This document shows positions 1-45,633 of a stretch of DNA of 64,000 nt, one piece after another (the first letter of the stretch is position 1; the number at the start of each line of letters is the position of its first letter). The notes beneath the pieces were generated by a model. The model did no database searches. It was given only the letters and a program-made list of their open reading frames with translations, and was not told the DNA's origin. Made by a program: the position numbers and the translations under genes. Origin of the DNA: Dryococelus australis (Eukaryota; Arthropoda; Insecta; Phasmatodea; Phasmatidae); the NCBI GenBank assembly GCA_029891345.1, contig CM057009.1, positions 294,873,966-294,937,965 on the forward strand. Direction: 5' to 3'.

Positions 1-606
1 ATGTGTTTTCTCCGAATCCTCGCATTTTATTTCTTTCGTTCTCACATTCGTTCGACACCACCACCAACTTGTTCCTTCATAGCCTGCTAGAGTACATGAA
101 CTGCAAGTGTGCATATTTATTTATGAATTTAAAAAAAGAATTTTACATACACGGGAAGGCAAAAAAAAAAAAATTCTAAAGTACATTCCAAGCAGGACTT
201 TGGAAAAAATATTTGAATTTCAATACTTTATTATTTTTTAAAATCAATATTATCTAACATTTTACTTTATTCAATTTGATTTTTACTTCCGTACGAAAAA
301 GAAGAATTTTTATTTAAAATTAAGTCGCATAGCATTTTAAACACGCACGCACACGCCGACAGGCCTGCAAGGCACACGCACCTGCTGTCACAGGCCAAGA
401 GTGCAATGGCATCGGTAGGCACCAGGCAGGGAAAAGGGGTCAAGGGGTGACGACATCCAAGCCAAGTGTGCCCGAACTTAAGAGATTGCTCGCAGTGCTA
501 TGCAGCCTTGTCAAAAAACGATTATACATATAGGAATCGATGCATTTTTAAGTTGGATTATTCTATTTAAATTAATTTTATTTATCATTGACTACAGGAG
601 AAATCT

Positions 607-684
<78 letters not shown>
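607..684. repeat. (TA)n microsatellite
   Basis: An almost pure TA dinucleotide run of about 75 bases. It lies inside the left TIR and has no counterpart of this length in the right TIR, so it expanded after the arms formed. Confidence 0.95.
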
Positions 685-687
<3 letters not shown>

Positions 688-794
688 AATATAGTAAAAT
701 GTATCTAAAACATATTTTTTTAAATTCGAAATCAGTTTAAACAATTTAAATTATGTAAATGTCACACTTTGCCATGGCAGCCGATACCATTTAA

Positions 795-870
795 AAAAAG
801 AAAAATCTCCCATAGTTGCAGAACTCGAACCCAATACCTCTAAGACAACAGTCAGCTGCTTTAACCTCTA
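795..870 (-). other. tRNA-like sequence in left TIR
   Basis: Read on the minus strand this stretch has a box A-like GATTTAGAGGTTAAAGC and a box B-like GGGTTCGAGTTC at tRNA spacing. Its partner is the plus-strand copy at 26557-26632 in the right TIR. It is probably a pseudogene or SINE head and not a functional tRNA. Confidence 0.55.
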
Positions 871-1705
871 AATCACAGAACTCATTCTAAATCAGTGCTT
901 AAAATTTGTATGTATGCATTCAAAAAAAGAAACTGCATTCCCCTGGTAAAATTTCATTAATGTATTAAACATTTTGTTGTACTATTTTTCAATCATTGTA
1001 AATATGGCGTATGAATGCTAATATTTTGAAGATGTATTTGTTTAATTTTTTAAACCCAAGTGATGTACTGTATTAAAACATATCATTTTTTTCATTCTGG
1101 GTTCGAATATTAAATTATATTATGTGCATATAACCACATTGACTATTTTTAAATATTATTTTTTAAAAAATTAATCAACATGTCGGGGTGTAAGGAAACA
1201 AATTTATATAGTAACATGTGAATATAATTTGCGAACTCTTAGGAGGCATGCAGTCTCATGAAATTCACCCTGCAGATATAATTTATATGTCCAAGATTGT
1301 ATCTCTGTTTCTGGTTACCATATAACTTTTCATAGCCATATGGGTGTGTCAATTAAAATCTCTATTTATTATTCGATTTTTAAATTTATTTAATTAAATT
1401 TTTTGAAGTTGTACTTTAAATGTAAGTACAGTACAGCAGAATTACGACAAATTTGTCTCAACTTCATTTAAGTTATCCTATATTTAAGATTAAATACTAC
1501 ATGATATCGGTATCTGTTAATTATTCACTACCTTGAATGTTTTGTAGGCATAACTATCCTATTCGGATTGAATTAAATTTATGTATATGTGAATAAACCA
1601 ATCCCGTGATATTCTCTATATCAGGGGAATTAGGCAGGATATAACACTAGTAAGAAATTAAACACTTTATATATATATATACATATACACACACTTCAGA
1701 CTATA

Positions 1706-2118
1706 GGCTGTTCATTATAAAATTAGCACTTTAGAAAGCCCTACTCAAGATCTACATGTATGCACGTTGTGTGTTCTTCTGTCTTACGTAAAGTTTTCAA
1801 TACCATGGGCATCGTCATTTTATTCATGCGTCGGTCAAGTAAAAGTGTAAATTTATTAGAAAATAAATATTTTACAAATCTGCATATTTTTCAACTCGAT
1901 ACATTATAAAACAGGTAGCTAAATATATAGTTTAAGTTATCACAAATTATTACCTTACATTTTATATTTGACGTTGAGATATGGAACTACTTTCCGTTCA
2001 TCGTTACCAACTTTAGTGGGCGCGTGCCACTCAGCGCAACCGTTAAAATATATGCAGGCAGAGGCAGTGATTTTTTCTAAGATTTAATTCAAACGGGCAC
2101 ACTTTATCGTGAACAGCC
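1706..2118 (+). mobile_element. MITE, GGCTGTTCA family, copy A
   Basis: The ends are inverted: GGCTGTTCATTAT at the left and TCGTGAACAGCC at the right. The inside shares a block (TTTATTCATGCGTCGGTCAAG) with the copy at 27938-28358. The flanks are TATA-like. It has no coding capacity. It lies exactly at the break in the left Polinton TIR, next to the Rep element. Confidence 0.8.
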
Positions 2119-2199
2119 TTTACAAACATAAACCCAGAATACTTCAATTTTCCCCACAATTCAAAAACTCGTATTTACAGCAGCATGCTCACTTTTCAT

Positions 2200-3650
2200 G
2201 GCGTGAATATAATCTGCTTATACACAGCTCAAGGCAGTCTATGCTAGCAAGTGCACATCCAGAACACTTAGTCATATATTCTTTTTTATCCGCGATAAAG
2301 TTTAACCACTGCAACTTTCAAACTAAGCTTCCTTACTGGAACCAGGCTGCATGTATATTCGCAAGCAAGCACCATACCACCCACAGTAACTCATCCCTGC
2401 CATCTGCTCTACCAACCAACACCAGGCGAAATATACTCATCGTTCATACCTATTAATATAAATCGAGCATACCTCAACAAAGTCCACACTAACCATACAA
2501 AAATATGCTTACTGCTAATATTTTTTTCTGCTCTACTGGTCCACACAAACCAATTATATACTAGTCACTATACCAATAACCATCCATTATAAGAATCCAT
2601 TATAATTATACCAGACCATCCAACAGCCCCATCTCCTACAACAAAATAAAAATTTAATTCAAACACACTACCCAATACACCAAGCAGAAAATCCATCATA
2701 GCTCGAGCAACTATACAGTTGAGGCAATCCCATAACCTAACGCCCATTATACTTGTTCTACCGACCAACGCCACTTATACCTACCAACCTTACAACCCAC
2801 TATAACTCTAGCATACTCCAGTCATACGTCCACACAGACCATACAAAGCAAACATACAGCCTCATACCAGTGACACAATCAACTTCTTCTCATACCATCC
2901 ACCATGCCAACTGGCACCTGGCAAAATACACTGACCACCCAAACCTCTTACTATAACTCAACCAAACCATAGCATTACAGGACTCGCCGACACATTCATA
3001 CTGTCCACACTGTTCGACATAAACCAACAATCGCAAGACAGATATAATGGAAAAATATGTAGCCCAACATACCATCCATGTTAACCCAAGTGTACCAAGC
3101 ATATTGTATAGTACAGACCAACCCTGCAACACAAACATTCTTACCATTTGTCAAACTAACATAACTTAAACTACTGAAGCCCAAAAAACCTAACGTACCT
3201 TAACCTACCAAAGGCCAAAACAAAAATCACAAATAACATCCCATAATCTAGATAAAAATTATACTTATTAAAAGCACAATTATGTCCTACATGTCTAGCA
3301 TTATTTCAGCCACTTAAGAAAACTAACATGTCCAAACATCAGAAATGCTTTTCAAACAGACTTCCGCCAACCAGCACTTCGAGTAACATTCGCTTTATCC
3401 TTACAAATGAAGAGTCGGATCAAGCAGAATCATATATAGTTACAATCCAATATAACCAAATAGAAATTCAGACACCAACACATCTACCTAAGCAACCATA
3501 CATTCAAGAACAGCACATAGGACAATATCCCTTATCATCTGTCAACATAACATAATCAACTGATACCTACCACCATATTATGACATCACCCAACAGCCAC
3601 ATTGGACCCTTAACGACCCATAAATGACCTGCATTGACACTGGTAACCTT
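2200..3650 (+). repeat. Left inverted arm of Rep element
   Basis: Its reverse complement aligns with 5105-6535 over the full length. Clear anchors are TGCTCTACCAACCAACACC at 2406-2424, pairing with the text near 6325-6340, the segment 2980-3150, pairing with 5600-5790, and CTGGTAACCTTTGA at 3640, pairing with TCAAAGGTAACCAG at 5110. The arm is rich in C and A on this strand. Reading frames on both strands are open for 60-115 codons but mirror the other arm and have no family match, so I do not call them genes. Confidence 0.85.
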
Positions 3651-3701
3651 TGATCTTGAAATCTATTTTATTTACAAAATAAAAATATACATAACACATA
3701 A

Positions 3702-4520
3702 TCATGGATTGAAAAACAATTCCACATGACCAAGAATATGTATGTCACCAGTAATACCAACTAATTTCCGATACAATGAAATCTGATCACCAAGTTCCTT
3801 CTTCATCTTCTCACATGAATACATAGACACATTACCAAAAACACTAATTACAGCAGTATTGTCTGCTTTACCCTCATAAATTGGAAAAGTCTTCCAACAG
3901 ATTATCCAGTTTGGATCAATATCATGTATCTCCTTTGGTGTAGGCTCCTCGATATAAGACCTTATGAAGAAAATCCTCATTGATCCAAGAATTATACCAA
4001 ATAGCGCACTTCTCATACCAACCCTTATACTCACCTACCATTAGCAACATGGACCCTTGTTTCTTACTGGCTTGAAACTCATTGAAACAACACTCCACAT
4101 ACTTATAATACTGAGGATGCTGTCTTACAAATGGGGATCATTGTAACTAATGCATTGAGTGCGCTTTAACCACTGATGACACTGAACATTAAAATGCAAA
4201 GTACCACTACTTACATTATACAAAGGCTCGACATCCTCCTTGATAATTTACTTCAAGACCTGATGACGATTTCTAGATGTCTGCACGTTAGGCATCCAAC
4301 CCATATGTGATGTCAAGATGTTGCCAACATACATCAACTCAAACTTCTCCAAACCTATAAACGCATGAATATGTAAGTCACCCGCACTATGCTTTTCTAA
4401 AGCAACGCGATATGAATTCACGGGAACAAACTTTGCAATAGAGTTAATACCTCACCTTTACTCAAAATGTAATTTCGAAAAGTCAAAAACAAATTGCTCA
4501 AATCGCGCTGCGATGTGGAC
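3702..4520 (-). pseudogene. rep: Geminivirus/CRESS-type Rep (rolling-circle replication initiator), broken
   Basis: On the minus strand the codons at 4353-4379 read DLHIHAFIG, a HUH metal-binding motif. In the same frame 126 bases downstream lies the motif-3 region with NVQTSRNRHQVLK, then a TAA at 4248-4250 exactly where the catalytic tyrosine is expected, then IIKED. Downstream, about 3970-4070 resembles the Walker A region but lacks an intact P-loop and is in another frame. At 3885-3929 (frame of the HUH motif) IHDIDPNWIICWKTF matches the Walker B/motif C region of Rep helicases. At least two frameshifts and three stops are present; the N-terminal motif 1 region near 4450-4490 is also out of frame. 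Such proteins nick and join DNA at an origin and unwind it. This copy cannot work. The match to geminivirus-like Rep is by motif order and spacing. Confidence 0.72.
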
Positions 4521-4817
4521 TTCTCGCCTTTACCGACAGTCGTAACTACATGCCTACCGCCACTATGGGAAACACAGCAGCAGCGAACTGTATCTTTAAT
4601 GTTACCGCTCCGCCCAGCACCCCTATCACCAGATGCACATCCGCCAATATCAGCAGTACCATCCCATTGCGCACGATCTATCGTCGAGCCAACATCTGCA
4701 CTACTACTTTATAAAATCCCCCCCAAAAAATGTAAAAATTTATTTAAAGACTTTTTCCATCAATTTTTCACAAAGATTGAAATATTGTTAATTATTGGTG
4801 TAAAAATTGTGAAATAA

Positions 4818-5005
4818 AAATTGAGTGATGTATCCACAGAGCGATGGATCGATGGAGTGATGTATCCACAGAGCGATGGATCGATGGAGCGATGGATTAA
4901 TTAATCGATGGATTGATGGGTCCATGGATTGATGGATCGATTGATCGATGGATCCATGGGTTGATGGATCGATGGACCGATGTATCAATGTGTCGATGGG
5001 TAATT
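4818..5005. repeat. Minisatellite of GATGGATC-type units
   Basis: Interwoven 4-, 8- and 12-base repeats of GATGGATCGATGGAGC and variants, with a 32-base higher-order duplication at the start (TGATGTATCCACAGAGCGATGG twice). It lies between the Rep core and the right arm. A 66-codon minus-strand frame across it is only the repeat. Confidence 0.85.
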
Positions 5006-5104
5006 TATGGGTGGTGGTGGTGCTGATTGTGGAAGATTAATGTAAAACAAGTCTTTAAATAATTAAAAAAAAAAATTTGGAATGTTATAAAAGTTTTTGG
5101 ATTT

Positions 5105-6535
5105 TCAGTGTCAAAGGTAACCAGATTCAATACGGGTCATTTATGGGTCATTATGGGTGCAGCATGACAGTTGGGTTACGCCATATTATGGTGGTTGGTA
5201 TCAGTCGATTATGTTATATTGACAGATGGTAAGGATTATTGTGCTATGGGCTGTTCTTGAATGTATGGTTGCTTGTGTAAATGTGATGGTGTCTGATTTT
5301 GTATTGGGCTATATTGTATTTTAACTAACTTATCTATAATTCTGCTTGATCCGACTGTTTATTTGTAAAAGTAAGGAGAAAGTTACTCGAAGTGCTGGTT
5401 GGCCACAGTCTGTTCCTAATGTTTGGATGAGTCAAATTTTCTTAAGTGGCAGAAATAATGCTAGACATTTAGGAAATAAGAGTGCTTAGGATAAGTATAA
5501 TTCTTATGTGTACTATTGTAGGTTATTCCTGATTTTTTCTTGCCTTTGGTATGTTAATGTAGGTTAGGTTTTTTGGCCTTTAGTAGGTTAAGACTTGTTA
5601 GTTTGACAAATGGTAAGAATGTTTTGTTGCTGGGTTCATCTGGACTATAAAATTTTCTTGGTACATTTGGATTTAATATGGATTGTTTGTTGGGTGTTTT
5701 TTTTTTTCAATATATATATCTTGCAATTGTTGGTGTATGTTGAATTGCGTGGACAGTATGTGTGTGTTGGAGAGTCCTGTAATGCTAAGGTATGACTGAG
5801 TTATATTAATAGGTTTTGGTGGTCAGTGTAATTTGACTGGTGTCAGTCGGCATGGTGGATGGTATAATAAGAAGTTAATTGTGCCACTGGTATGGGGCTG
5901 TATGTTTGTTTTGTTTGGTATGTGTGGACGAATGGCTGAGGTATGTTAGAGTTATAGTAGGTGGTATGGTTGGTAGGTATAAGCAGTGTTGGTTGGCAGA
6001 ACTAGTATAATGGTTGTTAGGTTATGGTCTTACCTGAGGTTTATAGTTGCTCGAGTTATGCTGGATAATGTGCTTGGTGTATTGGGTGGTGTGGTTGAAT
6101 TGAATTTTTCTTTTGTTATAGGTGATGGGGGGGGGGGGGGGGATTGGTGGTCTGGTATGACTTGGGTTATAATGTATAGTTGATTCTTATTGAGACTAGA
6201 ATATATCTCACTGGTGTCGACCAGTAGAGCATAAAGTATGAGCACTAAGTAAATTTTTTGTACGTTCGGTGTGCTCGAGTTATATTAAGAGATATTAACG
6301 ATTAGTAAATTTCGTCTGCTGTTGGTTAATAGAGCAGAATTCAGGGATGAGTTACAGTGAGTGGTATGGTGCCTGCTTGGAAGTATGTAAGCAGCAGGGT
6401 TCTAGAGAGGAAGCTTAGTTTGAAAGTGGCAGTCGTGAAACTTTGTTGTGTAGAAGAAGAATATATGGCTAAGGGTTCTGGTTGGACGCATGAAGGCGTA
6501 GACTATCTTGAGCTGCATATAGGAAGACTATATCA
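5105..6535 (-). repeat. Right inverted arm of Rep element
   Basis: This is the mirror of 2200-3650 and is rich in G and T on the plus strand. It contains a run of about 18 G at 6126-6143. Internal motifs such as TGGTGTTGGTT and GTAGAGCAGA occur in both arms. The outer end near 6535 abuts resumed Polinton TIR sequence. Confidence 0.85.
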
Positions 6536-6607
6536 GAAGACTAGTAATAAGGTATGGTGTTTCCGAAGGAATCACCATTTTCGGCCGAGGCGCGAGGCAC
6601 CAAGGTC

Positions 6608-6985
6608 ACATGAACGCCATTTTGGATTCCGCGCTTCCAGCTCTATCATTCTGGTTATGTGTACGCCATCTTGGATTCCTCCATGTTGTTAGCCAGAACA
6701 CCGACATCTTTGTAGCCAGTATGCCACCATTTCAGACCAGCATATTGTAGCTAGTGCGGCACAATCTTGGACCACCATCTTGGTACCCAGTATGTTATTT
6801 TTTCATGCTCTTGCATTCGGAGGGTTTTCTTCGAGTGTTCCCAATTTTTCTATTTTGTATTATTTCTCTCTTTATTTCTTTCTCTTTCTTCCTTTCCTCT
6901 CTATCTAATTCTCTCTTCTATGTTGCTAGAGACCGTCATCTTTTTTACTCTTTCATTACATTTTCATTAAGGCCACCATCTTGGT
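6608..6985 (-). promoter_or_regulatory. Cluster of CCAAGATGGCG (YY1/Pho-like) motifs, left TIR
   Basis: The plus strand shows CGCCATTTTGG, CGCCATCTTGG, CCACCATTTC, CACCATCTTGG twice and GCCACCATCTTGG, all in the same direction. The reverse complement AAGATGGCGG is the core of the vertebrate YY1 consensus; the insect homologue Pho recognises a GCCAT core. Whether anything binds here is inference. A matching cluster is in the right TIR. Confidence 0.4.
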
Positions 6986-7194
6986 TTTTCATTTATAATT
7001 TGTTTCCTCCTTAAGTTCTGGTTTTGGCCACTAGGGGCACCACTATATTCGTTCTTGCATTGGCCGCTAGGAGCGCTGGCGTTGCTCTCGTTCGATTGGT
7101 CGATCTCGCATCTGTCGCATGCGCTCCACTGCCATATTGGTTCTGGAATTGGGTGCTAGGGGCACTGTTTTTTTAGAACTCGAGATACCACCTG

Positions 7195-7266
7195 GAATTG
7201 TGCGAGATCGAACTACCTGACCTTGGGTCACCAGATTTACGCCTTAGACCTCTCGGCTATCGCGAC
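7195..7266 (-). other. tRNA-Leu/Ser-like sequence in left TIR
   Basis: On the minus strand the sequence starts GTCGCGATAGCCGAGAGG, continues with a box A-like TAGCCGAGAGGTCTAAGGCG and ends with GTAGTTCGATCTCGC, a box B-like T arm. This is the layout of a leucine or serine tRNA with a variable arm. The right-TIR copy at 24948 keeps the 5' half only. No intron or clean acceptor stem could be confirmed, so I treat it as a tRNA-derived pseudogene. Confidence 0.55.
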
Positions 7267-8156
7267 ATGTTTCTGGCACAAGAGTTTATAAATAGTATAT
7301 AGCTTCTAGTCGAATAAATAATACCTTGCCTCTCATTTAAGACATTACTTTTTTTTATTACATAATTTTTAAGTATTGCATTTACATATCAATAATTTTA
7401 ATTATATAATCTTTATTATATAATTTGCATTTCTTCTATGTTTATTTTAATATCTAAAATTTATTATAAGTATTTTTAATCAATAATTTTGTTTTTCATA
7501 TTTTTAATTTTATTTCCTATTATTTTGGTTTAACTTACATATATTGTTTTGATTTTACTTATATAACTTTATTTTTAAGTATTTTTTAACTATTATTTTA
7601 TTAAACTCTAAAGTGTATCGAGGGAGGAGTCTACGGATTCGTATTTTTCAGGGAGATAAGAATATGTCATCAGAATATATGATTACGTGACTATGACAAG
7701 CGCCATATTAGATTTTTTAAAAGCATATATAGAAAACGGTTTTAGTAAATATATGCCAAGTGTTTTATATTATGAACATTGATTATTCAGACATTTCGAT
7801 TTTTATTTACATACATAATAATAGTTTTTAATATACCAGACTTAAGTATGGAGGGACTTCTATGCTGAACTAAGAAAAACCTATATTTCCTACTCTTGTG
7901 TAATGTAATGCTTGTAATTTTTTTTACAACACACTATCCCATAAACTGTTCAGTATCCACTTCGCTTAACCTAAGTTAACCTTACCTTACTTAACATAAC
8001 CCAATCATCTTATAAGAAATCTGAATATATATTTTTTATTTCTCGACTTTTAACCATCACACTTTAGTCATCGCTGGACACCTCTTCACCTCCCCTCCTT
8101 CTAGTCCAGATACTGGACATTGTGAAAAAATAGCTGCCTGGGGTGTTTCCAACGTA

Positions 8157-9716: not shown

Positions 9717-10939
9717 ATGGAAGACGACAATGTACTGAACATGACCCAGCGGGCAGAATTCGACAACAGCATCGACAAGTTTGAGCTGCATTGCTACCAG
9801 CTATATCTGACTTGCCCCTATGCCTCGGGCATGAGGTTCGAATCCTGATAAAGCGTCAATATATCTACACTCTGTCTTCAAAATCATTCTTATGCATCCG
9901 AGGTACGCTCATGAAAGAGTACGTGACCCACCCACCACAACAGTGTTCGTTCGCAATGGTATACTTCACCTCATAGAGCGAGTAATGTATGAAATGAACG
10001 GTGTTACTATTAACGAAACACGGGATGTGGGCATAACCACCACCATAAAAAACTACCTCTCGCTAACGCCTAACAATCTAGACATGATAAAAATGGCAGG
10101 CTGGGGAATGGAAGATGGCTACAAAGTTCCCATATACGCAGAAAGCAAGTTCGAGGTGAGTGTGCCACTGTCGATGCTACTTGGTTTCGCTCAGGTTTAT
10201 AGGAATATAGCAATAGTAGCCAAGCAAGAACTGGTGATAATGCTACCCATCTCACATCTCGATGCAGTTTTGGGAGCTGGAGAAAATTTACAGCTCATCG
10301 CTGTAACCCTGATCAACATGGACTGGTTCATTCCCATGTAACTCCGAGCACCCGCGAATGCATGAAGCTATTGAACTACGTCAAGAAAGAAAAAATCATC
10401 GACATGACCTTCAGGAGTTGGCGTTTGGTTACGTGTACGATCCTGTCATCTGCCACGAGGAACCACTGTGTTGTGAAGACTTCTTCAAGCATGGCAAACC
10501 ACGTTATGTGGTACTGGCATTTAAAAAAAAGAAGCAACAGAACATCTCGGCAGACAAATCGACCTTCAACCGCTGCAAAGTCCAGAACGTAAAGATATTT
10601 TTGAATAGTGAAAGCTATCCGTACATAGATTTGAACACCTCCTTCGATCAAGAAGGATTTATGTTGGCATATTATTTGTTTACACAGTTTCAAACCTCCT
10701 ACTACAGATGCGAGTCCTGCCCTGTCCTAAGCCCAGAAAAATTCAGTAGAATGGCGCAATTGCTGGTCTTCGACACGTCCAAACAAAACAAGAGAGTTCA
10801 AAATGGTGTGGTGGATTGTCGGATAGAAATTATTTTCATGGAAAATGTGCCTGCGAACACTGCTACCGGCTGTTTGATTTTGCATGACAGAGTAGTGAGC
10901 TACGACTGCTTTTTGGGACTGGTGAACATGGTGAGCTAA
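9717..10939 (+). pseudogene. Major capsid protein (double jelly roll, hexon-like) of Polinton 1
   Basis: The likely start is ATG 9717 (MEDDNVLNMTQRAEFDNSID). The gene then passes through at least four frames: stops near 9847, an ORF from 9892 to 10341 with YEMNGVTINETRDVGIT and IKNYLSL, a short stretch at 10342-10480, and the C-terminal half from about 10490 to the TAA at 10939 with KPRYVVLAF, DLNTSFDQEGFMLAYYLF and VVDCRIEI. These are hallmark segments of adintovirus/Polinton capsids, normally 400-450 residues; the span here allows about 405. GC content is higher than in the flanks, which fits an acquired gene set. The virion role is family knowledge; this copy is dead. Confidence 0.85.
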
Positions 10940-17241: not shown

Positions 17242-18063
17242 CTATTTATAATTGAATGAATACGAAGGGCATCCAAAGACTTTTATTTTAGCTAGATTAT
17301 GCTTATGGTTGAGACACTTTTCAGCTGGAGTAACTCCTTTTGGAAGAGCAGATGTAGTCAGTCTATTACTGAGATAGGTTGCTGTCATAATGGCCTCTCC
17401 CCACATCTCCTTGGCAAAGTTACTATCTAGCAAGAGGCACCTGGTTTTCTCCAAAAGAGTTCTGTTCATTCTCTCCACTACACAATTTTGAGATGGATTT
17501 TTGGCCATAGAATATCTTACATGACTTCCTTTCACATCACAAAATCTCTTAAAATATGACGATACGTACTCACCTCCTCTGTCACACCTCAGATTTTCGA
17601 TGTGGCCATTAAACTTAGCCTCAACCATTGCTGTATACATTTTGAATTTTTCAAATACTTCTGATTTATTTATTAACAAATACGTGACACAAAAATGGCT
17701 ACAATGGTCAATAAATGTCACAGAAATAGTTACACCCACCATGCATTGGTGGGTTATCTTTCCACACACATCAGTAGATACATATTGGAGTACTCTCTTT
17801 TCTTTCCACCCCCCTGGTATAGTCTTAAGATATGGTAGCTTAGTCTGCTTACCTTTCAAACATACATCACATAATTCAATGGGATACATAGAAGAATGCC
17901 CCATTCTCCTGTGCATTAGTTTACTTGACACATCCTTTATTATAGCAGCATTCATATGCTCTGAAAGGAGATGCAGCTTTACTACATATAACCTTCCAAA
18001 AACTTGTTCCAACAGAATTATGCTACCATACGTAATTTTAACACCAGAGTTTTCAAAGATCAC
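17242..18063 (-). CDS. copia integrase (open frame of a dead polyprotein)
   Basis: There are 273 open codons. The N-terminal GAG-pre-integrase zinc site is HRRMGH...CDVCLKGKQTKLPY (H-H-C-C). The rve core has the first Asp in STDVCGK, the second in LRCDRGGEYVSSYF and the Glu in CVVERMNRTLLEKTRCLL, giving a complete DDE triad. The tail reaches the start of the RT linker. The frame is closed from the protease by a stop, so it would not be made from a normal polyprotein. It is the best-preserved part of the element. Confidence 0.88.
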   Translation of the reverse strand: MIFENSGVKITYGSIILLEQVFGRLYVVKLHLLSEHMNAAIIKDVSSKLMHRRMGHSSMYPIELCDVCLKGKQTKLPYLKTIPGGWKEKRVLQYVSTDVCGKITHQCMVGVTISVTFIDHCSHFCVTYLLINKSEVFEKFKMYTAMVEAKFNGHIENLRCDRGGEYVSSYFKRFCDVKGSHVRYSMAKNPSQNCVVERMNRTLLEKTRCLLLDSNFAKEMWGEAIMTATYLSNRLTTSALPKGVTPAEKCLNHKHNLAKIKVFGCPSYSFNYK

Positions 18064-18314
18064 TTTACATCCTTTCTCTTCTTATGGACAGAGAGTAAAT
18101 TGAATGACAAGTTGTCACAAACTAAATCATCATTTATTTTAATGTGATCTTCATCAGAAAAACAAGTAATATTGCCTTTACTCACCGCTTTCAGTAACTC
18201 CCCAGCCTTAGCCACACTGATATCAAAATTCACATCACTGCCTTCACTTAGATATTTCTTATAGGAGCTTTTAATGATATGGCAACTCGCACCACCATCA
18301 ATAACAAAAAGCAC
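18060..18314 (-). pseudogene. copia aspartic protease
   Basis: The frame opens MLFVIDGGASCHI, the active-site region of retropepsins, in which the normal D-S-G is D-G-G. The C-terminal LSFNLLSVHK is the conserved end of copia proteases that leads to the GAG-pre-integrase part. About 85 codons remain. Confidence 0.8.
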
Positions 18315-24080: not shown

Positions 24081-24947
24081 TCGAGATGTGTGTTAAGTAA
24101 GACTAGAAGAAGGGGAAGTGAAGAGGGGTCTGGCGATGACTAGAGTGTGTTGGTTAAATATCGAGAAAAATAAAAATTTATCATCTTCAGAGTTCTTACA
24201 AGATGATTGGGTTAGGTGAAGTAAGGTAAGGTTATATTAGGTAAAGCGAAGTGGATACTGAACAGTTTATGGTATTGTGAGTTGGAAAAAAAATTACAAG
24301 CGTTACATTACATAGCAGAAGGAAATATAGGTTTTTCTAAGTTCAACATAGAAGTCCATACATACTTAATAAGTCTGGGATAGTAAAAACATTTATTATA
24401 TATATAAATAAAAATCTAAAAAGTGTGATTAATCAATGTTCATAAAATAATACATGGCATATACTTACTAAAACAGTTTTTACATATGCTTTAAAAGAAT
24501 TAATATGGCGCTTGTCATAGTCACATAATAATAAATTCTGATGACATATTCTTATAAGAATGAAAAATACGAATCCGTAGACTCGTCACACGATACCCTT
24601 TAAAGTTTGATAAGAAATACTTAACAAATACTTAAAAATAAAATTATATCAGTTAACTGTAAAAATACATATGTAAGTTAAACCAAAATAATAAACAATT
24701 AAATAAAAAATAATATAATACAAAATTATTGAATGAAAATACTTAAGATAAATTTAAGATACTTGAAAAAGTTATATAAGAAATAAAAATCATATAATAA
24801 AAATATATTAAAAATTATTGATATATGATTGAAATACTTAAAAATGATATAGCAAAAAATAAAAATGTAATGTCTTAAATGAGAAGCAAGATATTATTTA
24901 TTCGGCTACAAGCTATATACTACTTATAAATTCTTGTCCCAGCTCAT

Positions 24948-25010
24948 GTCGTGATAGCCGAGAGGTCTAAGGCGTTAAGTCTGGAGACCTTAGCATCAAT
25001 TTTCAGAACC
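24948..25010 (+). other. tRNA-Leu/Ser-like 5' half in right TIR
   Basis: GTCGTGATAGCCGAGAGG and GTCTAAGGCGTTAAGTCTGG match the left-TIR copy at 7195-7266. The T-arm half is missing or diverged. Confidence 0.5.
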
Positions 25011-25199
25011 AATATGGCTGTGGAGCACATGCGACATATGCGATACGACTAATCTAACGAGAGCGACACCAGCGCTCCTAGTGGCCAATGCAAGAACCAT
25101 AATGGTTGAGCCCCTAGTTGCCAAAACCAGAACTAATGGGAGGAAACAAATGACAAACGAAAAACCATTATGGTGGCCTCCATGTAAATGTAAACAAAT

Positions 25200-25562
25200 A
25201 TAGCGGCCTCCAGTTACAAAGATGGCGGCATCCAGCAACAAAAATGGTGGCCTCCAGTAACAGCCGATGTAAACAAATGAACGAATGTGAAAGAATGAGG
25301 GAGAAAGGACAAGAAGATATACTGAGATAGAAAGGAAAGAAGAAGGGAGAAGGATAGGATAAAAGAGAAAGAAAGAATGTAAAAGATAAAAAGTGGGAGC
25401 ACTCGAGATAACCCTAGGAATGTGAGGGCATGAAAAAATGACTTTTTGGTTACCAAGATAGCGGTCTAAGATGGCGGCATAGTGGCTACAAAGATGGCGG
25501 TCCAAGATGGCAGTGTACTGGCACAAAGTTGAATGCATACTGGCTAACAACATGGCGGAATA
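25200..25562 (+). promoter_or_regulatory. Cluster of AAGATGGCGG (YY1/Pho-like) motifs, right TIR
   Basis: AAAGATGGCGGC at 25218, TAAGATGGCGGC at 25467, AAGATGGCGG at 25491, CAAGATGG at 25503 and ACATGGCGGAA at 25550, with weaker forms at 25239 and 25455. All point the same way. The set mirrors the left-TIR cluster. Binding is not shown. Confidence 0.4.
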
Positions 25563-26556
25563 CAATCTGGCGTACCTGTGGCCGGAATGATAGATCATCA
25601 TGTCTGGAATCCGAGATGACTTTGGCACCTCGCGCCTCACACTGCAGCTTGATGTCTTCGAACATACCACTTCTGACACTAGATGATGGGTATGAAAAAA
25701 TTTAATGATTCTGTTTTTATTTTTCTAGTCAGATGTATGTATTTATAAGATATAAATGAGAAGAAGTGTTAAATTTCTCGCTGGTGTTGTATCCGACCTA
25801 ATTCCCCTTACATATTGAATATGGAGGGATTGGTTTATTCACATATACACATATTTAATTCAATCCGAGTAGGATTGTTAGGGCTTCTAAACCTTCGAGA
25901 CAATGAATAATTAACCGATTCCGATATCATGGAGTATTTAGTCTTGAAGTAAGGAGACCTGAAATGAAGTTGAGAGAACTTTGTCATAGTTCCGCTGTAC
26001 TTTACATACAATTAAATAACAACTTTAAAAAATTACATAAAATAAATTTTAAAATCGAATAATAAAAAGCTATTTTTTTACTTGATGTTATACCCCTATG
26101 TCTATGAAAAGTAATATGGTAATCAGAAACATACATACATTCCTAGACCTACAAATTATATTTGCAGATGAGTTTCACGAGACTGCATGCCTACTAAGAG
26201 TTCGCAAATTATATTCACCTGTTACTATAAATGTTTGTTTGCTTACACCCCGACTTTCTGCATAATTATTTTTAAAATCAAATATAAAAACAATTAATGC
26301 GTGTATATGCATGTAATGTAATTTAATTTTCAGACCCTGAATGAAAAGAATAACGAGATGTTATAATACAGTAGATTGCTTGCCTTTAAATAAATTAAAC
26401 AAAAACAACTTCAAAATATTAGTATACATAAGCCATATACACACCGATTGAAAAGAATTATAACAAAAATTTTAATACATTAATGAAATTTTATCAGAGG
26501 AATGCAGCTTCATCGTTTGTATACTTATACACAAATTTCAATCACTCAGGTTGAAA

Positions 26557-26632
26557 TGAGTTCGGTGGTCCAGTGGTCAAATCATCTAACATTGGTTCAC
26601 AAGGTCTCGTGTTCGAATCCTGCCTTTCTGAG
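26557..26632 (+). other. tRNA-like sequence in right TIR
   Basis: GTTCGGTGGTCCAGTGGTCA (box A-like) and GTGTTCGAATCC (box B) sit about 40 bases apart, followed by a short T-rich tract. It is the partner of 795-870 and better preserved in box B. Confidence 0.6.
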
Positions 26633-27714
26633 ATAACATTTCCTTTATCAAATGCTATCGGCTGTTATGGCAAAGTGTAAAATTTGCATTATTTAAACTT
26701 TTTAAACTGATTTTGCATTAAAAATACAGATATACATTTTACTGTATTATTTTTTTAAAAGATTTTGGCAGTATTCGATGATAAATAAAATAATTTAAAA
26801 TTAAATAATTCTTCTTACATATAAATGCATTGATTCTTATATGTATGATCGTTTTTGACAAGGCTCAATAGCAGTGTGAGCAATCACTTAAGTTGGCACG
26901 CACTTGGCTCGGAGGTCGTTAACACTCGACCCCTTTCCCCCGCGCTGTGCCTACAGACATCACTGCACTCTTGGCCAGTCACGGAATGTGCGTCTGCCTC
27001 GCAGGCCTGTTGGCACATGCGTGCGTGATTACAAGGCTAGGAAAAATTAATTTTAAATTAGATTTTTTTTTCGTACAAAATTTAAAAAAAAAACTGATTG
27101 AATGAAGTAAAATATTTTTAAAAAAATTGAATTTTTTAAAAATGAAATATTTAAATTCAAATTTTTTCCAAAGTCCTGCCTTGAATGTCCTTTACAAAAT
27201 AATTATATGCCTTCACGTGTATGGAAAATTACATATTTAAAATCGTAAATGAATATACACTGGCGATTTGCGCACTCTAGCAGGTGATAAAGGAACTACA
27301 TAGATGGTGGTGTCGAACGAATATGGGGGACAAGAAAGAAGATATATAGAAGAAAGGCAATATAGAATAAAAGAGAGGACTAAATAATAATGGGAGACTC
27401 GGAGAAACGTATGGAATGATAGAGAGACAAATGACCAACGAAAAAACGAAAATGGTGGTCGAACGAAAGTCAGATTGGCCAGCCAATCAGAGCGCGAGGC
27501 GCTCCGCTACTCTGTAAAACGGACGGCGCGGCCAAAAATCCGGTAAGAAGCCAGAGAGAAGATAGCAGCTGCAGGGCGCATCTACAGGAAACGCCCCGCC
27601 GCCAAACCAATGATTTGGATATGAGTCGGGGTGCATTTGTCTTGCAAACACCCTGTGAGTTATGGGAATCCAAGCTCTCGGTCTCACGACGCCACGGCGT
27701 GTTTGTACGCATCT

Positions 27715-27937
27715 TGTGTACTCTTCAGCCACATGTAAAATTAACATAGCCATGAGCCTGATCGCTAATTTATTCATGCGTCAGTCACGTGAAACTGTGA
27801 CACTATTATAAAAGTAAATATTTACAGATTTCCTAGTTCTCCCTCCTACAAGCACCAAAAACAGAAAGTAAAAGAAATAATCTAAATATTTACAATTATT
27901 TAGGTAAGATTCTCAATTCGACGTCAAGTTATGTATA
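27715..27937 (+). mobile_element. MITE, GGCTGTTCA family, truncated copy
   Basis: It aligns with the inner part of the adjacent copy (TTTATTCATGCGTCAGTCACG, then ACAATTATTTAGGTAAGAT). The next copy begins directly at its end, so one member probably inserted into another. Confidence 0.65.
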
Positions 27938-28358
27938 GGCTATTCACGGTAAAATGAACGCACTTGAAAGCCCAGTTTAAGATCTACATGTATGCACGTT
28001 GTGTATTCTTCCGCCTTATGTAAAATTAACATTCCAGTGGGCCTCGTCACTTTATTCATGCGTCGGTCAAGTGAAACTGTGAAATTATAAGTAAAGTAAA
28101 TATTGTACAAATCTGCTCATTTTATACTTCGATGCATTAGAAAAAAAAGCAAAAAAGCTAAAGAAATAATTTACGTTATCACAAATGGTTACCTAACCCT
28201 TTTTATTGGACGTTTGGATATGGATTTACTTTTCCTGCATCATTACTGACTTTACTGGGCGCATGCCTGCCCGGGTACCGGCTAAAATATTCGCAGGTAA
28301 GGGTAGCGACATTTTCCAAAGGTTCATCTCAAAAGTGCTCACTTGATAGTAAACAGCC
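27938..28358 (+). mobile_element. MITE, GGCTGTTCA family, copy B
   Basis: The left end is GGCTATTCACGGTAAAATGA and the right end is TCACTTGATAGTAAACAGCC. It has the same orientation and inner blocks as copy A at 1706-2118. Confidence 0.8.
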
Positions 28359-28359
28359 T

Positions 28360-28848
28360 TCATATTTCAGTGTGGACAGCGGGAAGTTTTTGTGACGTTT
28401 GCCTTAGCCAGTGAGGAATCAGATCCCTCCAGTCTGTGATTCGCAGCCAGGCGCTGTGGTGTTTGCTGAGGTGTTGGCTCGACGCAGAGTGCTAACGTGG
28501 TATGTGGCGAGAGCACTAATGGCAGTAGGATATAAACAAAAGTGTTTTAAATACATCTAGATGAGAAACTTTTTCGCCCTATTATGGCTTTTCTTAAAAG
28601 TTAAAACTTAAAAACGGGCGGAACGCAAAACAAATTTACAAGAAATATTCTACCTAACGTTGTATTAACACCAGTTAATTTGATCTCAAGCATAACGTAT
28701 TTTGTCCAATTTTGAGATTTACATAAATAAATATATAAATTAAAAATCCCTATTGACGTTTTATTTGTTTATGAAACGTAAATTTCCTCCATTGTCAACT
28801 TTTTCAGGCTTTTATTTAATCTAACAACAGGAAAAGGTCTTAATATCC
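28360..28848. other. No gene recognised
   Basis: Mixed sequence with a moderately GC-rich stretch at 28380-28510. No frame or motif stands out. Confidence 0.4.
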
Positions 28849-35134: not shown

Positions 35135-35360
35135 GGCCGTTCACGGTGAAGTGAGCACTTTTTATGCCCTAGTTACTTTTTTCGTACAGCGAATTTGTAT
35201 CTTTCCACCACTTGTTAATGTAAACGCTGCCATGTGAGTAATAAATAAAGTGTCTACATTCACCATACCCAAAACCAAAAATCCGAGGCTACAATGAAAT
35301 GTATTTATTTGTTATAATGTCTGATGAAACACCTTCAGTTCTCACTTTACCGTGAACGGC
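35135..35360. mobile_element. MITE, GGCTGTTCA family, short copy C
   Basis: 226 bases between GGCCGTTCACGGTGAAGTGA and TCACTTTACCGTGAACGGC, flanked by TATA on the left and GTATA on the right. The terminal repeat is nearly perfect, so it is one of the youngest copies. Its right end is the seed of the tandem array that follows. Confidence 0.85.
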
Positions 35361-36430
35361 GTATAGCAGAGCGGTTGCGGTGTATATACACTGTACTGGC
35401 GCGCGGTCTCTTGAGGTGAACTTCTCCGCGGTGTCGTCAACATTTTACACCTCCACTCGATTGTTGTTTGTTATTATGTCTGATGAAACATCTTCAGTTC
35501 TCACTTTACCGTGAACGGCGTATAGCAAGGCAGTTGCGGTGTATATACACTGGATTGGCGCGCGGTCTCTTGAGGTGAACTTCTCCGCTGTGTCGTCAAC
35601 ATTTTACACCTCCACTCGATTGTTGTTTGTTATTATGTCTGATGAAACATCTTCAGTTCTCACTTTACCGTGAACGGCGTATAGCAGGGCAGTTGCGGTG
35701 TATATACACTGGATTGGCGCGCGGTCTCTTGAGGTGAACTTCTCCGCTGTGTCGTCAACATTTTACACTTCCACTTGATAGTTGTTTGTTATTATGTCTG
35801 ATGAAACATCTTCAGTTCTCACTTTACCGTGAACGGCGTATAGCAGGGCAGTTGCGGTGTATATACACTGGATTGGCGCGCGGTCTCTTGAGGTGAACTT
35901 CTCCGCTGTGTCGTCAACATTTTACACCTCCACTCGATTGTTGTTTGTTATTATGTCTGATGAAACATCTTCAGTTCTCACTTTACCGTGAACGGCGTAT
36001 AGCAGGGCAGTTGCGGTGTATATACACTGGATTGGCGCGCGGTCTCTTGAGGTGCACTTCTCCGCGGTGTCGTCAACATGTTACACCTCCACTCGATTGT
36101 TGTTTGTTATTATGTCTGATGAAACATCTTCAGTTCTCACTTTACCGTGAACGGCGTATAGCAAGGCAGTTGCGGTGTATATACACTGGATTGGCGCGCG
36201 GTCTCTTGAGGTGAACTTCTCCGCTGTGTCGTCAACATTTTACACCTCCACTCGATTGTTGTTTGTTATTATGTCTGATGAAACATCTTCAGTTCTCACT
36301 TTACCGTGAACGGCGTATAGCAGGGCAGTTGCGGTGTATATACACTGGATTGGCGCGCGGTCTCTTGAGGTGAACTTCTCCGCGGTGTCGTCAACATTTT
36401 ACACCTCCACTCGATTGTTGTTTGTTATTT
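35300..36430 (+). repeat. 159-bp tandem array, about 7 units
   Basis: CGTGAACGGC recurs at 35351, 35510, 35669, 35828, 35987, 36146 and 36305, an exact 159-base period. Units are nearly identical, with occasional changes (CAGAG/CAAGG/CAGGG after TATAG; CGCGG/CGCTG). Each unit contains the right end of the MITE at 35135 plus about 110 bases of flank (GGTGTATATACACTGGATTG, GCGCGGTCTCTTGAGGTG). The array starts in the MITE and ends near TTGTTATTT at 36430. An 89-codon frame in it is only the repeat. Confidence 0.95.
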
Positions 36431-36503
36431 GTCACGCTGCGCTGCACGAGTCAAGGTATGCAGTGTCTTTGTGATGATTTTATGAGCGTTTAAGATTGAT
36501 AAA

Positions 36504-36919
36504 GGCTGTTCACAATAAAGTGACCACTTTTCAAATCAACCTTAGGAAAATGTCACTGCTCCTACATGCATATATTTAACGGGCGCACTGAGTGCCATGC
36601 GCCCAGTAAAGTTGGTAACGATGGATGGAATGTAGTTCCATTCCAAAACGTCGAATAAAAAGTGTTAGGTAACCATTAGTGTTCGCTTAAATTATTTCCT
36701 TCCATTTATGTTTATTTTAATGTATCGAAATGTAAAAATTAGCAGATTTGTAAATAATTTACTTTTCTAATAATTTCATAGTTTTAATTGACCAACGCAT
36801 GAATAAAGTGGCGAGGCTCATGGCACTGTTGATTTTCCATAAGGTGGAAGAATACACAACGTGCATACAAGTAGATCTTAAGCAGTCCTTTCAAAAGTGC
36901 TCACTTTACTGTGAACAGC
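36504..36919 (-). mobile_element. MITE, GGCTGTTCA family, copy D
   Basis: Ends GGCTGTTCACAATAAAGTGA and TCACTTTACTGTGAACAGC. The inner blocks are in the reverse order of copies A and B. Confidence 0.8.
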
Positions 36920-36924
36920 ATTTA

Positions 36925-37430
36925 CTCAGTAATTGACCCGCGTGCTCTTTGGTCAGTTGAGCTGGTATTGCTGTAATTTAGTATGATTAGATTTCAGCCA
37001 ATCTTAGTCAAATTGTTGTACGGTGCTTGGCATCCCGGTGGCACGTCCTTGTATTTTTTTACTTTTTGGAGTTTTGGTTTTTCAATTTTCCTGTTTGGTT
37101 TTCCTGGTTTTGTAATACCTCGCAACCGCTTACCTACTCTACGGCAATGCCTAGTGATAAACAGTTCTCATGCAAATTATTATTAATCTGAGTATGCACG
37201 AATGAGGTCCATTGTCCCTTTCGTGTTACTTTCTAGGCTCGATTAAGCTTTGTTTGCATGAAGTGGGGGAATAGCCTTAAAGTAGAACATAGACTGTGTC
37301 GTTCGGACGTTACATGTTAACGAGTCACGCTTGCATTTTGGTCAACTGTACTATAAATCAGTTTACATACGACCCGGTACGTGAGTGTAGTGTGCCCGAT
37401 CACTACCAGTGGGAAAAAAACACTTTTATA
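36925..37430. other. No gene recognised
   Basis: Intergenic sequence between two MITEs. A 67-codon frame at 36983 has no family signature. Confidence 0.4.
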
Positions 37431-45035: not shown

Positions 45036-45039
45036 TAAA

Positions 45040-45633
45040 GGCTGTTTACGACAAAGTGAGCACTACTGAAATCAACCTTAGATAAATTTTACTGCTCATA
45101 CCTGCATATATTTTAACAGGCGAACTGAGTGACATGCACCCAGTCAAGTTGGTAACGATGAATTAAAAGTAGTTCCATAACTTAACATCGAATAAAAAGT
45201 GCCGCGTAACTATTTGTGAAAACTTAAATTATTCCTTTCACTTTTATTTTATTTTAATGTATCGACGTGTAAAAATGAGAAGATTTTCTAAATACAGTAA
45301 AACTCCGTTAAGACGTCTCTTAAGGGACTGAAAAAATAATGCTTGTTAAAAAGGAAATCTTTTTTTTAAGGGACGAATTTCAAATATGCAAATAGGCAAA
45401 GTGCACAATTAATCAACTATTAGACAGGAAAACTTCTTAAGTGGGAACTTCTTAACAGGGTTTCACTGACTTTACTTTTGTAATAATTTCCTATTTTCAC
45501 TTGACAGAGACATGGATAAAGTGATGAGGTCAATTGTAACGTTAATTTTACATAAGGCGGAAGAAGACAAAACATGTATACAAATAGATCTTAAGCAGGG
45601 CTTTCAAAGGTGTTCATTTTACCGTGAACAGCC
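45040..45633 (-). mobile_element. MITE, GGCTGTTCA family, copy F, with nested element
   Basis: It starts GGCTGTTTACGACAAAGTGA and ends TTCATTTTACCGTGAACAGCC. It has the same inner order as copy D and is enlarged by a 174-base element inside. Confidence 0.8.
45295..45468. mobile_element. Nested pogo/Tigger-like MITE
   Basis: CAGTAAAACTCCGTTAAGA at the left and the reverse complement of CAGTGAAACCCTGTTAAGAA at the right. CAGT-starting ends preceded by TA are typical of pogo/Tigger relatives. 174 bases, noncoding. Confidence 0.75.

What the first reader, a model, noticed from the sequence alone, without database searches (positions are those of the whole stretch)
2200..6535. A Rep-encoding element with 1.45-kb inverted arms in an insect-like genome
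Two long inverted arms enclose a minus-strand gene with the HUH motif (DLHIHAFIG), a motif-3 region and a Walker B-like IHDIDPNWIICWKTF in geminivirus/CRESS Rep order. Known animal-genome CRESS insertions are usually bare rep fragments without such arms. The layout suggests a transposon family built on a CRESS Rep, or a captured head-to-head replication intermediate. It is nested in a Polinton TIR, so it moved after that Polinton integrated and is not contamination.
Basis: partly seen in the sequence, partly recalled or inferred. Interest (0 to 1): 0.88.

Follow-up and report, generated by a model that had tools for sequence, protein, structure and literature searches.

The report
Rep relic in a palindromic repeat
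A broken piece of a plant-virus-like replication gene has landed inside an older, unrelated mirror-image repeat of a large insect-like genome, and it leads to a family of that gene linked to a far more numerous 1.3-kb satellite-like DNA that looks as if it once existed as circles.

Summary
The arms are real (2207-3661/5103-6533; 1157 of 1413 aligned bases identical) and a geminivirus-type Rep fragment lies between them, but they are not one element. In other copies the arms belong to a palindromic repeat whose outer part is this Polinton's outer TIR (14 of 18 loci); 0 of those 18 carry the Rep stretch. Rep (3975-4703, minus) came in with a 1,037-bp insert at 3667-4703 in the left arm's inner end. 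The supposed Walker B ORF belongs to another repeat, 'M'.

The Rep family is multicopy: 33 places, Gemini_AL1 over cut-off at 4, third-codon-position excess (0.21/0.18/0.44), so it long evolved as a working gene. M has at least 1,326 places, no clear coding constraint, a ~1,335-bp unit joined head-to-tail and inverted with scattered ends, shares a 51-94-bp block with the Rep leader (5 of 5), and lies beside 18 of 29 Rep copies (0.05-0.23 expected).

Best reading: fossils of a Rep-encoding replicon and its satellite-like, probably circular partner. Circles were not shown directly.

The parts
43..1703 (+). outer part of the Polinton left TIR, also the outer part of the long palindromic repeat family
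   Evidence: 75-78% to 25726-27325 inverted; lies next to the arm in 14 of 18 other loci; the similarity of the two sides can be followed to about 58 bp before the window
1700..2132 (+). MITE-like repeat inserted in the left TIR between outer part and arm
   Evidence: 3 further copies aligned from the window; no counterpart in the right TIR
2133..3666 (+). left arm of the palindromic repeat (first-stage 'arm' from 2207)
   Evidence: family comparisons
3667..4703 (-). whole insert (M fragment + rep fragment) in the inner end of the left arm; no target duplication seen, a few bases of target seem missing
   Evidence: uninterrupted arm in L006 (both arms), L007 and the window's own right arm
3667..3972 (-). 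fragment of the high-copy ~1,335-bp unit M (about 632-939 in coordinates based on L077); contains the 3' end of an ORF without clear constraint ('IHDIDPNW...')
   Evidence: 85-91% to the other rows
3975..4703 (-). 5' part of a CRESS/geminivirus-type rep gene, broken into three frames, truncated before Walker A
4248..4451 (-). rep frame with motif II (HUH) DLHIHAFIG, ends in a stop at the place of the motif III tyrosine
4418..4708 (-). rep frame with motif I (LFLTFRNY)
   Evidence: compare motif I in L023, L025, L028
4565..4643 (-). block in the rep leader homologous to M 1353-1432
   Evidence: 57/79 identical, score 65 against shuffle mean 21.7, sd 3.2, max 39
4704..4822 (+). inner end of the left arm, resuming after the insert
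   Evidence: L006 and L007
4820..5012 (+). degenerate array of (ATGGATCG)-type repeats: loop of the palindrome
   Evidence: same type of array beside the arm in L006, L002, L013
5013..6533 (-). right arm of the palindrome, not interrupted
6642..8106 (+). inner part of the Polinton left TIR
   Evidence: 74-84% to 24101-25594 inverted
9835..10939 (+). Polinton major-capsid-like gene in two frames (9835-10341, 10313-10939)
   Evidence: PF21738 DJR-like, E 5.3e-23 and 2e-41

Best explanation
The window shows nested insertions. Oldest: a Polinton-like element with long terminal repeats, whose left repeat contains a palindrome (arm-loop-arm) typical of a repeat family that shares the Polinton's outer terminal repeat. 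Later a 1,037-bp DNA piece entered the inner end of the left arm without a visible target duplication. That piece is a chimera of two components of another system, joined in the same orientation: the 5' part of a geminivirus-type Rep gene and a fragment of M. The system, as I read it: a small Rep-encoding replicon (HUH nuclease plus SF3-like helicase motifs) that copied itself by rolling-circle replication in germline cells, and a satellite-like partner M (about 1,335 bp, no clearly conserved gene) that shares a block next to the Rep start with the helper and was copied by its Rep. Both integrated repeatedly as linear fragments, head-to-tail multimers and inverted dimers, probably through host end-joining. 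Shown: the nesting, the Rep family, constraint on Rep and none clear on M, the head-to-tail and inverted joints, scattered ends, the shared block and the adjacency. Inferred: that circles existed outside the chromosome, that Rep copies M, the route of integration, and whether the helper ever had a capsid.
For: Nesting. Rep family: 33 places; Gemini_AL1 4 places over cut-off and 10 of 12 frames at E <= 0.01; by simple patterns in three frames, motif I in 10, HxH in 17, YxxK in 16, Walker A in 6 and Walker B in 5 of 29 loci. Rep evolved under constraint: mismatches per codon position 0.210/0.181/0.445 over 23 of 29 copies (6 dropped for short alignments); M's ORF 0.086/0.076/0.089 over 19 copies. 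M copy number: 660 + 666 sites for one 20-mer with <= 1 mismatch, 0 for the reversed control. Unit and ends: 9 head-to-tail crossings in 7 of 18 loci, 12 inverted joints in 8 of 18, 7 other same-strand joints, 4 of 36 outer ends within 12 bp of the joint. Close pairs (< 6 kb) of the exact 20-mer on contig 1: 5 inverted, 0 direct among 86 sites. Shared block: 5 of 5 rep copies tested score 55-67 against shuffle maxima 35-42; in L079 a second M block (M160-283, 88%) follows in the same order. Adjacency: an M stretch of 80 bp or more in 18 of 29 rep loci (1.5-kb flanks), 0.05-0.23 expected.
Against: No intact rep, no circle, no read data. No stem-loop with the CRESS nonanucleotide was found: NANTATTAC is kept in 15 of 17 M copies, but inside M's ORF-like part, in a stretch that is conserved anyway (42 of 291 nine-base windows are better conserved), and the fold of one copy (L077) shows no stem around it. 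The Rep unit's own circularity was not seen: no wrap-round at its 3' end in L079/L080. M loci were picked by similarity to the module, so their ends are a biased sample; 7 of 18 left ends fall at unit position 573-641, which random breakage does not predict; L077, the reference copy, ends exactly at both sides of the joint, as a fixed-end element would. In the 3' half of M's ORF position 2 differs less (0.084/0.063/0.090), so weak constraint there is not excluded. No relative was found in IMG/VR (Rep; M), in phages or plasmids (Rep piece only) or in the protein collection (M; Rep). The SF3 assignment rests on motifs read by eye and by pattern; the one frame scanned had no Pfam hit. The PDB profile's best match, the TYLCV Rep domain, has only E 0.26, with unrelated chains at 0.44 and 0.63.
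Confidence: 0.6

Rival explanations
1. Rep and M are a chromosomal transposon family (autonomous Rep element and non-autonomous M) that moves by a rolling-circle or circle-intermediate route, with no free virus or plasmid stage; the variable ends and inverted joints are by-products of aberrant transposition.
For: Very high, interspersed copy number of M, a partner without clear coding constraint that shares a block with the Rep element, adjacency of the two, one M copy that is exactly one unit long, and the precedent of a 42-copy geminivirus-like transposon in a truffle (PMC3198968, section 8 read).
Against: Scattered M ends in 18 loci, no target duplication seen for the window insert (not tested for M copies), no transposase domain in the frames scanned.
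Confidence: 0.25
2. Ordinary endogenous CRESS virus fragments, plus an unrelated interspersed repeat M that was spread by the chromosome; the shared block is an old capture of rep leader by M and the adjacency reflects M-rich landing sites.
For: Endogenous Rep sequences are reported from many eukaryotes (PMC3198968, abstract and passages); M's ORF shows no clear constraint.
Against: 18 of 29 adjacency against 0.05-0.23 expected, order and orientation of the two shared blocks in L079 as in M, several different M-Rep joints.
Confidence: 0.11
3. One reading: a transposon family built on a CRESS Rep with 1.45-kb terminal inverted arms, or a captured head-to-head replication intermediate.
For: Only the window's geometry.
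Against: 0 of 29 Rep loci have the arms; 0 of 18 arm loci have the Rep stretch; insertion point read through in four arms; arms lie next to Polinton outer TIR in 14 of 18 loci.
Confidence: 0.04

Closest known systems
Geminivirus-like transposon of Tuber melanosporum (Liu et al. 2011, PMC3198968, section 8 read)
   Same: A geminivirus-type rep in tens of interspersed copies in a eukaryotic genome; no obvious target duplications.
   Different: The truffle element has 37-bp terminal inverted repeats and transposase ORFs and its copies are >95% alike; here no shared ends and no transposase were found in what was sampled, rep copies are far apart (third positions 0.44 different), and a partner M without clear coding constraint is far more numerous.
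Endogenous CRESS/geminivirus Rep sequences in eukaryotes (PMC3198968, passages)
   Same: Broken rep pieces with Rep motifs inserted at unrelated places, some inside transposons.
   Different: As far as I recall usually single fragments or small groups; here a linked satellite-like unit in over a thousand places.
Multi-component CRESS replicons and alphasatellites (nanoviruses, bipartite begomoviruses: recalled; definition of alphasatellites in PMC6186406, passages)
   Same: Small circles of about 1-1.4 kb (recalled) that share a common region with a Rep-encoding component.
   Different: Known multipartite CRESS genomes are from plants (statement in PMC6186406, passages); here an insect-like germline; no capsid, no origin stem-loop and no free circle shown.
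Helitrons (recalled)
   Same: HUH nuclease, rolling-circle copying, non-autonomous partners in high copy.
   Different: The nuclease frames match Gemini_AL1 and no other Pfam family; the helicase motifs look SF3-like (by eye).
Foldback and long-TIR elements; Polintons (recalled families)
   Same: The 1.45-kb arms with an inner tandem array are a foldback-like palindrome joined to a Polinton TIR.
   Different: Arms and Rep insert are separate elements.

Membership tests
Geminivirus-type CRESS Rep | HUH nuclease domain (Gemini_AL1) | tested here: met
   Family relatives: 10 of 12 frames at E <= 0.01, best 2e-12; 4 places over cut-off in the genome, 0 of 14 controls; the window piece alone is below cut-off
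Geminivirus-type CRESS Rep | motifs I, II (HUH), III (YxxK) | tested here: met
   10, 17 and 16 of 29 loci by pattern; the window copy has I and II, a stop at III
Geminivirus-type CRESS Rep | SF3 helicase with Walker A and B | tested here: inconclusive
   motif patterns in 6 and 5 of 29 loci; no Pfam hit for the one frame scanned; missing in the window copy
CRESS DNA virus (true virus) | capsid gene | tested here: inconclusive
   M's ORF: no Pfam hit for two frames, no clear constraint; little shared sequence beyond rep and M around the rep loci
CRESS DNA replicon | origin stem-loop with nonanucleotide | tested here: inconclusive
   NANTATTAC in 15 of 17 M copies, no stem in the copy folded, not an outlier in conservation
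CRESS DNA replicon | circular unit | tested here: inconclusive
   M: head-to-tail crossings in 7 of 18 loci and scattered ends, which tandem repeats would also give; Rep unit: no wrap-round seen
Alphasatellite / multi-component CRESS system | common region shared between components | tested here: met
   51-94 bp block in 5 of 5 rep copies tested, second block in L079
Geminivirus-like TIR transposon (Tuber type) | fixed terminal inverted repeats and transposase ORFs | tested here: not met
   M ends scattered; for rep only 1.5-kb flanks were seen, with little in common beyond M; no transposase hit in the frames scanned
   0 of 29 rep loci, 0 of 18 arm loci
Polinton/Maverick (host element of the arms) | DJR major capsid and long TIR | tested here: met
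   PF21738 twice; inverted sides 43-8106/24101-27325
Polinton/Maverick (host element of the arms) | protein-primed DNA polymerase B and retroviral-type integrase | not tested
   only six pieces of the body were scanned
Helitron | Helitron-type Rep nuclease domain | tested here: not met
   only Gemini_AL1 hit among 12 nuclease frames; the Pif1-type helicase was not tested

The most novel reading that the evidence does not exclude
An animal germline carries the fossil record of a two-component rolling-circle system: a geminivirus-type Rep replicon and a gene-less circular satellite that used its Rep, invaded the chromosomes more than a thousand times as permuted and inverted fragments, and together make up a class of interspersed repeat that arises from integrating circles and not from a transposase.
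Probability: 0.42. Interest if true: 0.82.

Novelty: new variant of a known kind. Interest (0 to 1): 0.62.

Why it matters
If the satellite reading is right, a CRESS helper-satellite pair lived in an animal germline long enough for its Rep to diversify under selection and its satellite to reach repeat-family numbers. That would make testable how single-stranded DNA replicons become interspersed repeats without a transposase, and would put a satellite-type CRESS system outside plants. The correction also matters: two unrelated repeats, one inside the other, imitate a single Rep transposon.

Tried and rejected
Rejected: Rep with the 1.45-kb arms as its ends; the 'Walker B' ORF as part of Rep; retroposition of an M transcript, since no T-rich tail is seen in the 45 bases printed left of the module in 19 copies; arms as coding DNA (mismatches by position 92/86/78); subrepeats in the arms (11 of 60 Markov controls also give E < 0.01); ATAT as target duplication of the arms (seen), dropped once the family showed that the arms go on beyond 2207.

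Led nowhere: Rfam (no match), protein searches with one frame each of L058 and L052, IMG/VR scans, plasmid and phage tblastn with the HUH piece. Planned and not done because the genome search stayed busy: counting a 20-mer across the M joint.
Full report
What is in the window. Arms 2207-3661 and 5103-6533 are inverted copies (78.6% with gaps; 1157 of 1413 ungapped columns), with the same skewed composition when read inward (A 0.38, C 0.28-0.29, G 0.10, T 0.24) and no codon periodicity in their differences (92/86/78). Between them are minus-strand frames with an FLT-type motif I (4418-4708) and an HUH motif (4248-4451), a third frame (3922-4137), a fourth with IHDIDPNW... (3702-4034), and a degenerate 8-base array at 4820-5012. 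Of the four frames only the HUH piece hits Pfam (Gemini_AL1, E 0.0064, below cut-off). All lie in the left of two large inverted regions (43-8106 and 24101-27325) around a body with a double-jelly-roll capsid, i.e. a Polinton; the body also holds a retrotransposon-type integrase stretch (rve E 6.5e-06, below cut-off).

The arms are not Rep's. The genome (3.415 Gb, 646 contigs) gave 62 rows for the arm from 5103 first-look candidates, 40 of them scored, 20 given as loci. Of the 18 loci other than the window's own two, 14 go on from the arm into the sequence that forms the outer part of this Polinton's TIR (in L010 after about 0.8 kb of other DNA, in L008 at another joint), and none contains any of 3667-4703. 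L078 (L006 with more flank) reads outer-arm-loop-arm-outer with an array of the same type in the loop. Through the point where the window has 3667-4703, both arms of L006, the arm of L007 and the window's own right arm run on without interruption. So 3667-4703 is a 1,037-bp insert in the inner end of the left arm. I see no target duplication, and roughly 8-10 bases of target seem missing (by eye). The right Polinton TIR lacks arm, loop and arm (about 130 bp between 25594 and 25726); whether it lost them or the left gained them is open.

The Rep family. The HUH piece finds 33 places, the window included; 30 came as loci and 29 of these are other copies. None of the 29 has the arms in its 1.5-kb flanks. 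Gemini_AL1 is over its cut-off at 4 places, best 48.1 bits over positions 2-104 of 113, and in 0 of 14 control genomes; 10 of 12 aligned frames hit it at E <= 0.01 and nothing else. The best PDB match of the profile is the TYLCV Rep domain, at only E 0.26, with unrelated chains at 0.44 and 0.63. Simple patterns in three frames find motif I in 10, HxH in 17, YxxK in 16, Walker A in 6 and Walker B in 5 of 29 loci; L039 shows MGKST, and L039 and L052 show FYDxIxFEEFD. The window's copy is truncated at 3975, before the helicase. Across 23 of 29 copies (6 dropped for short alignments) the mismatch rate is 0.210, 0.181 and 0.445 at codon positions 1, 2 and 3 (pairs are not corrected for relatedness): the lineage that seeded these copies stayed under purifying selection for a long time. 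Outside Rep and M, the flanks of rep loci share little, so most copies look like separate insertions.

M. The other part of the insert, 3667-3972, matches a very numerous repeat: 43 rows from 40 scored of 2211 candidates, 85-91% in the rows other than the window's own; one 20-mer from next to it occurs 660 + 666 times with at most one mismatch, the reversed control 0 times. Against one observed copy (L077) other copies run from unit position 153 to 1453, then through about 34 bp (32-61 in the printed cases), and again from 153: 9 such head-to-tail crossings in 7 of 18 loci, 12 inverted joints in 8 of 18, and 7 other same-strand joints; four rep loci (L029, L033, L036, L043) cross too. Outer ends are scattered; 4 of 36 lie within 12 bp of the joint, but 7 of 18 left ends fall between 573 and 641, which I cannot explain, and L077 itself ends exactly at both sides of the joint. 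On contig 1, 5 close pairs of the exact 20-mer are all inverted, none direct (86 sites). M's ORF is open for up to 174 aa, but its codon positions differ about equally (0.086/0.076/0.089 over 19 copies; in the 3' half 0.084/0.063/0.090) and two frames have no Pfam hit: no clear sign of a maintained gene.

Link between Rep and M. M 1346-1453 is homologous to the leader of rep in 5 of 5 copies tested, the window included (51-94 aligned bases, scores 55-67; shuffle means 21.7-23.3, maxima 35-42; two other parts of M and the other strand against the window 15-20). In L079 a second M block (160-283, 88% over 124 bp) follows upstream in the order and orientation found in M across its joint, with a longer spacer. 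M stretches of 80 bp or more lie in 18 of 29 rep loci (17 with a stretch upstream of the HUH motif, 2 with one downstream; in one, L028, it is the possible common block itself), against 0.05-0.23 expected by chance. The joints between M and Rep differ from locus to locus. The window's insert is one such joint, M 632-939 next to the 5' part of Rep.

Mechanism. The simplest account is a Rep replicon and a satellite-like unit that share a region next to the Rep start and were copied by the same Rep, then integrated as permuted, tandem and inverted fragments by end-joining. That is an inference from anatomy: multimers with scattered ends and inverted joints are what rolling-circle products could leave, and a terminal-repeat transposon would not be expected to. 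It remains unshown that circles existed, that the Rep unit itself is circular (no wrap-round seen in L079/L080), where the origin lies (NANTATTAC kept in 15 of 17 M copies, but no stem in the copy folded and no more conserved than many neighbours), or that there was a capsid.

Known relatives. Liu et al. 2011 (PMC3198968; abstract, passages and section 8 read) describe endogenous geminivirus-like reps and a 42-copy geminivirus-like transposon in a truffle with 37-bp TIRs, transposase ORFs and no obvious target duplications. Rosario et al. 2018 (PMC6186406; passages) state that multipartite CRESS genomes have been seen only in plant-infecting ones and set alphasatellites apart as capsid-less CRESS replicons. 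PMC6668415 (passages) reports that helitrons do not connect to CRESS-DNA viruses in its network. My nine paper searches listed no description of such a Rep-M pair in an insect; I read listings and abstract starts for most, and the library holds only open-licence papers, so this is weak evidence of absence.

Verdict. Observation partly confirmed; interpretation right on Rep, wrong on the arms. The by-product (Rep family plus numerous M) is worth more than the original claim.

Noticed in passing
window 1700-2132, 27934-28360, 36488-36927 (-), 45036-45294 (-); L051 5865-6289: MITE-like repeat of about 430 bp with short inverted ends.
   Followed up: partly
window 43-8106 and 24101-27325; L078: The Polinton's outer TIR is shared with a numerous outer-arm-loop-arm-outer palindrome, possibly a non-autonomous Polinton derivative or a foldback that recombined with a Polinton end. 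Its outermost ends and target duplications were not reached.
   Followed up: partly
L004, L007, L009, L011, L012, L013, L014, L015, L017, L018: 10 of 18 arm copies carry roughly 0.65-0.77 kb of extra sequence near arm positions 84-95.
   Followed up: no
window 2207-3661 and 5103-6533: Strong mirrored base skew of the arms (C about 2.9 times G when read inward), unexplained.
   Followed up: no
window 35305-36558: Tandem array with a 159-bp unit; five of six further register copies are 96-97% alike, the last 65%.
   Followed up: no
window 17242-18081 (-): Retrotransposon-type integrase stretch (rve E 6.5e-06, gag_pre-integrs E 0.00089, both below cut-off) within the Polinton body; Copia-like is my recall.
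   Followed up: no
M unit positions 573-641 (L054, L057, L059, L063, L067, L070, L071): 7 of 18 M copies have their left end in this 69-bp stretch, just past the apparent ORF's 3' end.
   Followed up: partly
contig 1 of G000, exact matches in the list: The 5 close pairs (< 6 kb) of the M 20-mer on this contig are all inverted, one only 36 bp apart.
   Followed up: partly
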